Origin: Luteibacter sp. OK325
GTDB taxonomy: Bacteria > Pseudomonadota > Gammaproteobacteria > Xanthomonadales > Rhodanobacteraceae
Length of the DNA: 64,000 nt
Reading direction: 5' to 3'
Assembly (NCBI RefSeq): GCF_003050935.1
Contig: NZ_QAOX01000001.1
Location: 186,001 to 250,000, forward strand
Shown: positions 14,724 through 29,840 of the stretch, in pieces
How positions within the stretch are numbered: position 1 is the first letter of the stretch
Layout: every line of letters starts with the position of its first letter
Position numbers and translations under genes: made by a program
Notes under the pieces: model-generated
Databases searched by the model: none
What the model saw: the letters and a program-made list of their open reading frames with translations, nothing else
What the model was told of the DNA's origin: nothing

Positions 14724-15710
14724 ATGCGTATCGGCCCCTACTCCATCGCGCCCGGCGTGGTGCTCGCACCCATGGCTGGCGTGACCGACAAGCCCTTTCG
14801 CCTCCTCTGCAAGCGCATGGGGGCGGGCCTGGCCGTGTCCGAGATGACCACCGCCGACCCGCGCCTGTGGAATACGACCAAGTCGCTGCGCCGCATGGAT
14901 CACGACGGTGAGCCCGAGCCGGTCAGCGTGCAGATTGCCGGCTACGACCCCGGCATGCTTGCCGAGGCGGCGAAGTACAACGCGGACAACGGTGCGCAGA
15001 TCGTCGACATCAACATGGGTTGCCCGGCGAAGAAAGTCTGCAACGTATGGTCGGGCTCAGCGCTCCTGCAGGACGAACCCCTGGTGGCGCGCATCCTCTC
15101 CGCCGTGGTCAAGGCGGTGGACATCCCCGTCACGCTGAAGATCCGCACCGGCTGGGATCGCGACAACCGCAATGCCCTGACCATCGCGCGTATCGCCGAG
15201 GACGCCGGCATCGCCGCGCTCGCCGTGCACGGCCGCACGCGTGCCGACAAATATGAAGGTGACGCCGAGTACGCGACCATCGCCGCGGTCAAGGCCAGTG
15301 TGCGCATCCCGGTGATGGCCAACGGCGACGTCGTCACACCCGAGAAAGCGCGTGAGGTCCTCGCGGCCACCGGCGCCGACGCCATCATGGTCGGTCGCGG
15401 TGCGCAGGGACGACCGTGGATTTTCCGCGAGATCGCGCATTTCCTCGAGACAGGCCATCACCTCGCCGAGCCCACGCCCACCGAGGTACGCGACATCCTG
15501 TGCGGTCACCTCGACCACCTCTACGCGTTCTACGGCGAGAAGATGGGCGTGCGCATCGCACGCAAGCACCTGGGCTGGTACGCGAAGGACCGCCCGGAGA
15601 ACGCCGCCTTCCGCGATGTCGTCAATCGCGCCGAAGATGCCACCACGCAGACGCGCCTCACCCGCGACTACTTCGACGCCCTCGAAGCCGGCGTATCCCT
15701 CGCCGCCTGA
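14724..15710 (+). CDS. dusB: tRNA-dihydrouridine synthase B
   Basis: A 328-residue flavoenzyme that reduces uridines in the tRNA D-loop. It has the N-terminal FMN TIM barrel (LAPMAGVTDKPFRLLCKRMG), DINMGCPAKKVCNVWSGSAL with the catalytic Cys near residue 100, VHGRTRADKYEGDA, and IMVGRGAQGRPWIF, followed by the helical DusB domain (HYAxR-like RIARKHLGWYAK). Length and motifs match DusB rather than DusA or DusC. In many gammaproteobacteria dusB is followed by fis; here it is followed by a repeat array and the convergent dctA. The last codons through the stop are partly duplicated just after the gene. Confidence 0.95.
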   Translation: MRIGPYSIAPGVVLAPMAGVTDKPFRLLCKRMGAGLAVSEMTTADPRLWNTTKSLRRMDHDGEPEPVSVQIAGYDPGMLAEAAKYNADNGAQIVDINMGCPAKKVCNVWSGSALLQDEPLVARILSAVVKAVDIPVTLKIRTGWDRDNRNALTIARIAEDAGIAALAVHGRTRADKYEGDAEYATIAAVKASVRIPVMANGDVVTPEKAREVLAATGADAIMVGRGAQGRPWIFREIAHFLETGHHLAEPTPTEVRDILCGHLDHLYAFYGEKMGVRIARKHLGWYAKDRPENAAFRDVVNRAEDATTQTRLTRDYFDALEAGVSLAA

Positions 15711-15722
15711 TCCCTCGCCGCC

Positions 15723-15807
15723 TGATCCCTGTGGGAGCCTGATCCCTGTGGGAGCCTGATCCCTGTGGGAGCTTGATCCCTGTGGGAGCCTGATTCCTGT
15801 GGGAGCC
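15723..15807. repeat. Five tandem 17-bp repeats ending in the REP head
   Basis: Five near-identical copies of TGATCCCTGTGGGAGCC start at 15723, 15740, 15757, 15774 and 15791, with single-base changes in copies 3 and 5. The array is preceded by a 15-bp unit, TGATCCCTCGCCGCC, that copies the end of dusB with its stop codon. The last copy runs directly into a complete REP palindrome. Confidence 0.95.
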
Positions 15808-24022: not shown

Positions 24023-24040
24023 GTCATGAATATTGTGCAT
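24023..24040. promoter_or_regulatory. Candidate GalR-type operator upstream of the porin
   Basis: On the minus strand the site reads ATGCACAAT-AT-TCATGAC, matching 16 of 18 bases of the site upstream of galD at 20666-20683. The 330-bp gap between the porin and the fdhF-like gene otherwise holds only a partial REP head (GTGGGAG, near 24076) and no gene that I can see. Confidence 0.55.
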
Positions 24041-24228
24041 TGCAGCAACGGGACCGATGCTCCGATGAGCGCCCTGTGGGAGTCAGGCAGGGCGTGATTG
24101 CGGCAGAGGCACATATGCCGCGACACGCAAGGATTCTGCCAGTCCGCCGACAACGGACGGCACATCGCGCGATTAATAACGCCGTCCCGTTTAGGATTGG
24201 CACAGGTGTCAGATCACGAGGCGAACCC

Positions 24229-26563
<2,335 letters not shown>

Positions 26564-26574
<11 letters not shown>

Positions 26575-27532
26575 TCGGGATCTACCGAAAGGATGTGCGA
26601 CGCGGCCCGTGCTCCGCGTGGAGCGCGGGGTCGCGACGCCGGACGACGACCGCCTTGCCGAGGAAGTGCCGATCGCGATGCACTTCGACGGCGAGCCGTT
26701 CGCGGTGATGATGGCAACGCCGACCGACCTCGAAGACTTCGCGCGCGGGTTCGCCCTCACCGAGGGTCGCGTCGGTTCGGTCGCGGAAATCGAGCGGATC
26801 GATGTGCAGGAAGTCCTCGAAGGCATCACCGTAAACATCCGTACGTCGAAGACCTGTAGGAGCCGCTTCAGCGGCGAAGGCAGCTCGCCTCAGGCTTCAA
26901 CGGAAGGCTCCGCGGGGATCGCCGATGAAATCGGCTCCTACAAGAGCACTGACGATGAAATCGGCTCCTACAAGAGCACTGACGATGAATTCGGCTCCTA
27001 CAAAGGCATCGCCGGCGGAGCCGGCTCCCCCAAAGAGCGGCTGTTGCCCGGTCGCAGCGGGTGCGGCATTTGCGGCAGCCGCGAGCTGGAGGATGTGGTG
27101 CGTCATCCCGATCCCGTGGGCATGGGTCCGACGATCGGCGTCGACGCCATCGAGCGGGCGCTGGAATCGCTGCGCGCATCGCAGCCGATCAACGCCTTTA
27201 CCGGCTCCGTCCACGCGGCGGCATGGGCGCTACCCGATGGCGCCCTCACCTGCGTTCGCGAGGATGTCGGCCGGCACAATGCGCTGGACAAACTCATCGG
27301 CGCGATGAGTACAGCGCAGATCGATGCTAACGACGGGTTCGTCGTGATCACCAGCCGCGCGAGCTATGAGATGGTCACCAAGGCGGCGGTTGCCGGCATC
27401 ACCATCGTCGTCGCGATATCGGCACCGACGGCGCTGGCCGTGCATCTTGCCGCCGATTGTGGACTTACCCTGATCGGGTTTGCGCGGCCGGGGCGGTTCA
27501 ATGTTTATAGCCGGCCGCAGCGGATTATCTGA
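26564..27532 (+). CDS. fdhD: FdhD sulfurtransferase with an in-frame REP-derived insertion
   Basis: A 322-residue protein, about 55 longer than usual FdhD. FdhD passes sulfur from a cysteine desulfurase to the Mo cofactor of formate-dehydrogenase-type enzymes. Conserved parts are [20 protein letters not shown] (about residues 34-53), [22 protein letters not shown] with the reactive CxxC at C167/C170, and [18 protein letters not shown]. Residues 98-156 are encoded by a REP array (26855-27031) that includes a 30-bp tandem repeat read as [10 protein letters not shown]. The insertion keeps the frame and sits just before the CxxC loop. The gene overlaps the molybdoenzyme gene upstream. Confidence 0.9.
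26855..27032. repeat. REP array inside fdhD
   Basis: It begins with a full REP (TGTAGGAGCCGCTTCAGCGG, then CGAAGG at 26855-26880). From 26924 come two exact 30-bp copies starting GATGAAATCGGCTCCTACAA, at 26924 and 26954, a diverged third at 26984 and a fragment of a fourth at about 27014. Each copy holds an inverted REP head (GGCTCCTAC). All units stay in the fdhD reading frame. Confidence 0.92.
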
Positions 27533-29662: not shown

Positions 29663-29840
29663 GTGTAGGAGCCGCGTCGGCGGCGACCGATCGGTGTCGC
29701 GAGCACCCATCGCCGACGAATCGGCTCCCACAAAAGCCATCGGCTCCCACAAAAGCGGCTGGCTCCCACAAAGACAGCCGGCTCCCACAAGACACCCGGA
29801 CCGGCCGGGAACCCTGTGGGAGCCGCTTCAGCGGCGATGC
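29663..29840. repeat. REP cluster with repeated heads between moeA and the EF-G gene
   Basis: A REP pair (about 29664-29738) is followed by the inverted REP head GGCTCCCACAA repeated near 29742, 29760 and 29780, then a full REP ending near 29838. The heads are spaced 18-20 bp apart, a tandem pattern like that after dusB. Confidence 0.88.

What the first reader, a model, noticed from the sequence alone, without database searches (positions are those of the whole stretch)
26855..27032. REP array inserted in frame inside fdhD, encoding a repetitive peptide next to the catalytic CxxC
FdhD is about 55 residues longer than usual. Residues 98-156 are encoded by a REP element plus a 30-bp tandem repeat ([10 protein letters not shown], twice exact, then diverged). 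Flanking FdhD sequence resumes exactly and the frame is kept, because the unit is a multiple of three and the reading frame avoids the TAG in TGTAGGAGC. REP elements are by definition extragenic; one that has become coding, and expanded, in an essential accessory protein of a molybdoenzyme is unusual. It could lengthen a loop before C167/C170 without loss of function, or mark a gene under decay.
Basis: partly seen in the sequence, partly recalled or inferred. Interest (0 to 1): 0.75.

Follow-up and report, generated by a model that had tools for sequence, protein, structure and literature searches.

The report
Mobile DNA repeats inside fdhD
A short mobile palindromic repeat that normally sits between genes has landed, in frame, in a floppy loop of the formate-dehydrogenase helper protein FdhD of a Luteibacter bacterium and then multiplied there; some relatives carry other repeat types in the same loop, so this looks like a repeat-prone spot in a working gene and not a decaying one.

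Summary
The fdhD frame is open, and 26855-27028 holds a REP doublet (two oppositely oriented GTAG-type REPs), a 30-bp tandem repeat and a further REP, all translated, just before the CxxC motif. The REP core occurs 1,089 times in this Luteibacter genome (control 2), which has one RAYT-like gene followed by a similar REP array.

The gene is not decaying: the FdhD body shows dN/dS 0.044 and 0.061 against the two nearest species, which share the in-frame doublet but not the 30-bp expansion. The insert lies in the CxxC loop, disordered in the prediction and, by the literature, in E. coli FdhD.

New here: perfect REPs occur in this loop in 6 of 23 Luteibacter genomes, with four stem types, each present in other copies in its own genome; on the fdhD tree presence needs at least four changes. 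The loop is a recurrent capture site, or an old insertion rewritten by resident REPs. FdhE in the same genome also carries an in-frame REP array, and four other genes clearly hold interior REPs in 1.65 Mb surveyed.

Coding REPs are already described (PMC3733652; Rickettsia RPEs), with one same-site precedent in Xanthomonas recB. This is a well-documented new case of a known kind.

The parts
26609..27532 (+). fdhD (FdhD/NarQ family, PF02634); GTG start at 26609 chosen by codon bias, not proven
26855..26877 (+). REP1, TGTAGGAGCCGCTTCAGCGGCGA, read as C-R-S-R-F-S-G
   Evidence: its stem type is the commonest in the surveyed 1.65 Mb
26878..26918 (+). Spacer of the REP doublet; 26-31% different between the three species while the arms differ by 4-11%
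26919..26942 (-). REP2, inverted, closes the doublet; read within A-D-E-I-G-S-Y
26924..27003 (+). 30-bp tandem repeat ([10 protein letters not shown] twice exact, then DEFGSYK); each unit is 19 bp of REP2 plus 11 bp; absent from the two nearest species
27008..27028 (-). REP4, inverted, GGCTCCGCC stem type
27062..27073 (+). CxxC codons (C166, C169 of P0001), intact
24040..26574 (+). Upstream formate dehydrogenase / molybdopterin oxidoreductase-like ORF, unbroken; ends 34 nt before the chosen fdhD start; family named by reading, not tested

Best explanation
A RAYT-mobilised REP doublet (a REPIN) inserted in frame into the disordered loop that precedes the CxxC motif of FdhD in the ancestor of the window strain and two sister species. 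It was tolerated because the loop takes widely different lengths and sequences. In the window strain the right-hand REP then expanded by tandem duplication with the genome's commonest same-strand REP spacing, 30 bp, which is ten codons, and gained one more REP. FdhD is functional and simply carries a longer, variable loop. In other Luteibacter lineages the same loop took up REPs of a locally resident type independently. Shown: REP identity, frame, sharing by three species, selection on the body, predicted disorder of the loop, presence of the same stem types elsewhere in the genomes concerned. Inferred: RAYT as mover, replication slippage as expander, neutrality of the extra peptide, independence of the insertions.
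For: REP copy number 1,089 with control 2; one Y1_Tnp/RAYT-like gene in the genome followed downstream by a REP doublet and a roughly 30-bp tandem REP array. Shared in-frame doublet in G009 and G019, which form a 100/100 clade with the window. Body dN/dS 0.044, 0.061 and 0.038 against insert 0.29, 0.51 and 0.66 in the three pairs. AlphaFold pLDDT under 50 for residues 105-169, with 229 of 321 residues at 90 or more (alignment of P0001 with 39 of the 68 loci). Literature passages place CxxC on a disordered loop of FdhD. Same-strand REP spacing in 1.65 Mb is commonest at 30 bp (9 of 42 pairs). Four stem types in the loop, each with further copies in its own genome: CTTCAG in the window genome (91 in 1.65 Mb; not counted separately in G009 and G019); CCATGG 49 exact copies in G002; GGCTTGCC in G013, 13 of the 21 genus-wide matches at up to one mismatch, the fdhD copy included; ACCCTGT the commonest of the 100 REPs listed for G021, 28 of 100. 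Presence on the fdhD tree needs at least 4 changes and the bearers do not form one clade.
Against: RAYT activity is inferred from neighbourhood only, and the array lies on one side of the gene. The insert counts rest on 31 codons and three non-independent pairs. Some REP-free loops look like faint REP relics to the eye (G018, G005, G022, G004), so the independent-insertion count may be too high. G002 and G021 lie in a clade with weak inner support. REP abundance does not predict the trait: G004, G022 and G008 have 200-368 REPs and no perfect one in fdhD, G013 has 14 and does. No sequencing reads or other strains of this species could be checked, so the repeat number could be wrong in the assembly.
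Confidence: 0.82

Rival explanations
1. One ancestral REP insertion in the fdhD loop of the genus, never lost as a site, whose arms are rewritten by gene conversion or RAYT-guided replacement from the resident REP pool of each genome, so that stem types differ between lineages.
For: REP arms in the three clade-A species change less than synonymous sites: same-amino-acid codons changed 0 of 16, 2 of 14 and 2 of 14 in the arms against 85 of 214, 88 of 219 and 96 of 216 in the body (Fisher p 0.0004, 0.04, 0.02; the pairs share data). Possible eroded REPs in G022 and G004 beside the intact one in G002.
Against: Sister loops of G005 and G018 show no REP-like match at all, and none of the 17 Luteibacter loops without a perfect REP scores above the best background windows (12). 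G013 holds very few REPs of any kind (14), so a donor pool is small there.
Confidence: 0.3
2. The hairpin is kept for a job in the fdhD mRNA or DNA (translation pausing, mRNA stability), and the peptide is a by-product.
For: Arms conserved beyond synonymous expectation; the segment folds better than shuffles, z -2.54, 3 of 200 shuffles as good.
Against: REP sequence is self-complementary wherever it lands; most Luteibacter fdhD genes do without it (17 of 23 lack a perfect REP).
Confidence: 0.08
3. The repeat peptide tunes FdhD function, for example reach or contact of the CxxC loop with the cysteine desulfurase.
For: Position next to CxxC; the loop is the sulfur-transfer loop in E. coli by the literature.
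Against: Insert dN/dS far above the body; unrelated non-REP inserts in G010 and G003 (loops of 168 and 117 nt); the published role of the cysteines is itself disputed.
Confidence: 0.08
4. Gene decay or assembly artefact.
For: None found beyond a tandem repeat being a place where assemblies can err.
Against: Body dN/dS 0.044 and 0.061; residues invariant among the 40 aligned sequences are by definition kept here, the first cysteine among them; shared doublet in two other genomes.
Confidence: 0.03

Closest known systems
Intragenic GTAG-type REPs (BMC Genomics 2013, PMC3733652; passages, section 15 and the first of two parts of section 17 seen)
   Same: Same element class; dimers and clusters inside known proteins, read as 20 to 82 residues; different REPs at about the same site in recB of X. 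campestris and X. oryzae
   Different: Different genus and gene; here four REP stem types at one loop across one genus, a 30-bp expansion, and selection measured on the host gene
Rickettsia palindromic elements (RPE) in coding genes
   Same: Short palindromic repeats kept in unrelated proteins
   Different: By PMC3733652 the R. conorii intragenic repeats are of the CGTC type (RPE-4, RPE-6) or the longer RPE-1; here a GTAG REP with a RAYT-like gene in the genome. The original RPE papers were not read
REPINs and RAYTs (PLoS Genet 2011, PMC3116915; seen in a search listing only)
   Same: Inverted REP pairs dispersed in the genome together with a RAYT
   Different: This copy is coding; that REPINs are mainly extragenic is recalled, not read here

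Membership tests
GTAG REP family | GTAG tetranucleotide at one end of the palindrome | tested here: met
   TGTAGGAGCC at 26855
GTAG REP family | Palindromic stem with short loop | tested here: met
   GCCGC TTCA GCGGC; score 14
GTAG REP family | High copy number dispersed in the genome, mostly between genes | tested here: met
   1,089 places; in 1.65 Mb 21 of 229 copies inside called genes against 198 expected (home-made gene caller)
GTAG REP family | Frequent oppositely oriented dimers | tested here: met
   44 of 106 neighbouring pairs are +/-
REPIN/RAYT system | RAYT gene in the genome with REPs of the same family beside it | tested here: met
   L179, PF01797 E 2.5e-9, REP array on its downstream side only in the stretch shown; named from the Y1_Tnp profile, no RAYT-specific model was run
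REPIN/RAYT system | RAYT moves the REP | not testable with these tools
   Needs bench work
FdhD/NarQ protein family | Pfam profile match over both halves and CxxC | tested here: met
   243.8 bits, two stretches; closest solved structure by sequence 4pde
Pseudogene | Relaxed selection on the gene | tested here: not met
   Body dN/dS 0.044 and 0.061

The most novel reading that the evidence does not exclude
The FdhD CxxC loop is a standing docking site for REPs in Luteibacter: REP arms that land there are actively renewed from the genome's own REP pool, giving a protein loop whose DNA evolves in concert with a thousand intergenic repeats and whose length varies by 10-codon steps.
Probability: 0.15. 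Interest if true: 0.65.

Novelty: new member of a known kind. Interest (0 to 1): 0.42.

Why it matters
It gives a countable case of an extragenic mobile repeat becoming protein sequence in a conserved enzyme-maturation gene, in several lineages of one genus and with different repeat types. That makes it testable whether REPs prefer certain loops, whether coding REPs are refreshed by conversion, and whether such inserts are neutral. It also warns that FdhD and FdhE of REP-rich Luteibacter may look split or too long in annotation.

Tried and rejected
Gene decay was rejected on dN/dS. Spread of one REP-bearing fdhD allele by transfer was rejected because the bearers are not one clade on the fdhD-body tree (AU test; the group was chosen after seeing the data, so its p value is not to be taken at face value). 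A conserved non-REP domain was rejected: most of the 38 other FdhD loci in the alignment have a short loop. A REP in the loop outside Luteibacter: 65 of the 68 loci could be scanned; four hits, of which three are Luteibacter already counted and one, a Rhodanobacter (L124), looks like a chance match in ordinary FdhD sequence. The first gene caller was poorly trained and its scores were discarded; (3 of 120 REPs inside genes on C1, narrower REP pattern) and replace it. The successor is home-made and sees only genes whose frame stays open, so REPs that broke genes are not counted. C1:475639 in a secretin-like gene is probably a chance match. Comparison with relatives without the insert was made only for FdhD and FdhE, not for the other genes with REPs. 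The FdhE comparison used 12 of 13 genomes (L225 was missed by my pattern). Strain-to-strain repeat variation could not be examined: one genome per species is held.

Full report
What is there. The window lies in a 4.94-Mb genome; the nearest named relatives found with its FdhD are Luteibacter. fdhD runs from about 26609 to 27532 behind a formate-dehydrogenase-like ORF. Between the N-terminal part and the CxxC motif it carries a REP doublet (26855-26877 and 26919-26942, opposite strands), a 30-bp tandem repeat (26924-27003) and one more inverted REP (27008-27028), all in frame. The TAG in TGTAGGAGC is out of frame (ACC TGT AGG AGC).

It is a REP, not a look-alike. The core occurs at 1,089 places at up to two mismatches against 2 for the reversed pattern. 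With the pattern GGAGCCG-N6-CGGCGA, 7 of 22 other Luteibacter genomes have 166 to 799 copies, 3 have 13 to 40 and 12 have 9 or fewer. The window genome has one RAYT-like gene, with a REP doublet and a roughly 30-bp tandem REP array just downstream. In 1.65 Mb surveyed the commonest same-strand spacing is 30 bp, 9 of 42 pairs, so the fdhD period is one the genome uses elsewhere.

Coding REPs in this genome. In C1:1-850000 and C2:1-800000 a home-made caller placed 21 of 229 REP copies (116 clusters) inside genes against 198 expected from coding density. They fall in 12 genes. REPs well inside a gene are in seven: fdhD, fdhE, a phosphopantetheinyl transferase, a GH35 beta-galactosidase, a phytase-like esterase, a large NRPS-like gene and a doubtful secretin-like one (the NRPS and secretin names are my reading, not a search). 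In the other five the REP lies near a called gene end. So coding REPs are uncommon but not unique here.

Sharing and recurrence. G009 and G019, the nearest species (100/100), share the in-frame doublet without the 30-bp expansion. A perfect REP (score 14) lies in the same loop in 6 of 23 Luteibacter genomes; 0 of 350 windows of 120 nt elsewhere in the same 28 genes (5 outgroup genes included) and 0 of 5,600 shuffled loops reach it, the best being 12 and 13. Stem types differ: CTTCAG (window and G009; in G019 that REP has a mismatch and the perfect match is its second REP), CCATGG (G002), ACCCTGT (G021), GGCTTGCC (G013). Each has further copies in its own genome: 49 exact CCATGG copies in G002, though a minority type there, 13 matches in G013 out of 21 in the genus, and 28 of the 100 REPs listed, of 528, in G021. 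Presence needs at least four changes on the fdhD tree. Against counting four insertions: some loops look like eroded REPs, and G004, G022 and G008 have 200-368 REPs but no perfect one in fdhD, while G013 has only 14 and does.

FdhE. 13 of 23 Luteibacter genomes have a match to FdhE_N. The window genome's FdhE also holds an in-frame REP-derived array (four six-residue units of the PVGANT kind and a REP), splitting its Pfam match; G009 has a shorter, diverged one and G019 none, among 12 aligned. Whether two formate-dehydrogenase helpers being hit is more than coincidence I cannot say.

Selection and structure. Body dN/dS is 0.044, 0.061 and 0.038 in the three pairs of clade A; the 31-codon insert gives 0.29, 0.51 and 0.66. 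The REP arms are more conserved than synonymous sites (same-amino-acid codons changed 0 of 16, 2 of 14, 2 of 14, against 85 of 214, 88 of 219 and 96 of 216 in the body; p 0.0004, 0.04, 0.02, not independent), which hints at renewal or structure. AlphaFold gives residues 105-169, which include the CxxC, pLDDT below 50 with a confident core. Passages of two papers (PMC6239281, 12 of 51 places shown; PMC10609526) place the CxxC on a disordered loop of FdhD, and the first reports the cysteines not essential for activity.

Literature. PMC3733652 (passages, section 15 and the first of two parts of section 17 seen) already describes intragenic GTAG REPs, suggests they may be neutral in loops, and notes different REPs at about the same site in recB of two Xanthomonas. 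Searches for REP with Luteibacter (2 papers, seen as listings with the start of the abstract, neither apparently on this) and for fdhD with extragenic palindromic (none) gave no report of this case in the held library; on coding palindromes were seen as listings only (apart from PMC3733652), with 20 of 50 papers shown.

Verdict. A real, in-frame, expanded REP array in a fdhD under purifying selection; a new and unusually well-replicated case of a known phenomenon.

Noticed in passing
G000:C2:151465-152478 (L187:11465-12478, - strand): FdhE with an in-frame REP-derived array (four PVGANT-type units plus VGADSSAK); a shorter one in G009, none in G019.
   Followed up: partly
L179:1390-1875 (G000:C3, - strand): The genome's single Y1_Tnp/RAYT-like gene, followed by a REP doublet and a roughly 30-bp tandem REP array.
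   Followed up: partly
G000:C2:21639-22931 (L181:1639-2931, - strand): Gene with no Pfam hit, ending in four REPs at exact 30-bp spacing, read as VGAASAAN/VGADSSAN.
   Followed up: no
G000:C2:38252-44926; C2:141517-142263; C2:650039-651991; C1:250744-252354: REPs in an open frame inside an NRPS-like gene, a phosphopantetheinyl transferase, a GH35 beta-galactosidase and a phytase-like esterase.
   Followed up: partly
window 29722-29790: 19-bp tandem repeat (CGGCTCCCACAAAAGCAGC, 3.6 copies) resembling REP tails, upstream of a moeA-like gene (named by reading).
   Followed up: no
window 15695-15807: 15-bp and 17-bp tandem repeats (the latter GCCTGATCCCTGTGGGA, 5.2 copies, 95% matches).
   Followed up: no
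L020 and L008 (G010, G003) fdhD loop: Long alanine-rich non-REP inserts in the same FdhD loop; loop length varies from 57 to 225 nt in the genus.
   Followed up: partly
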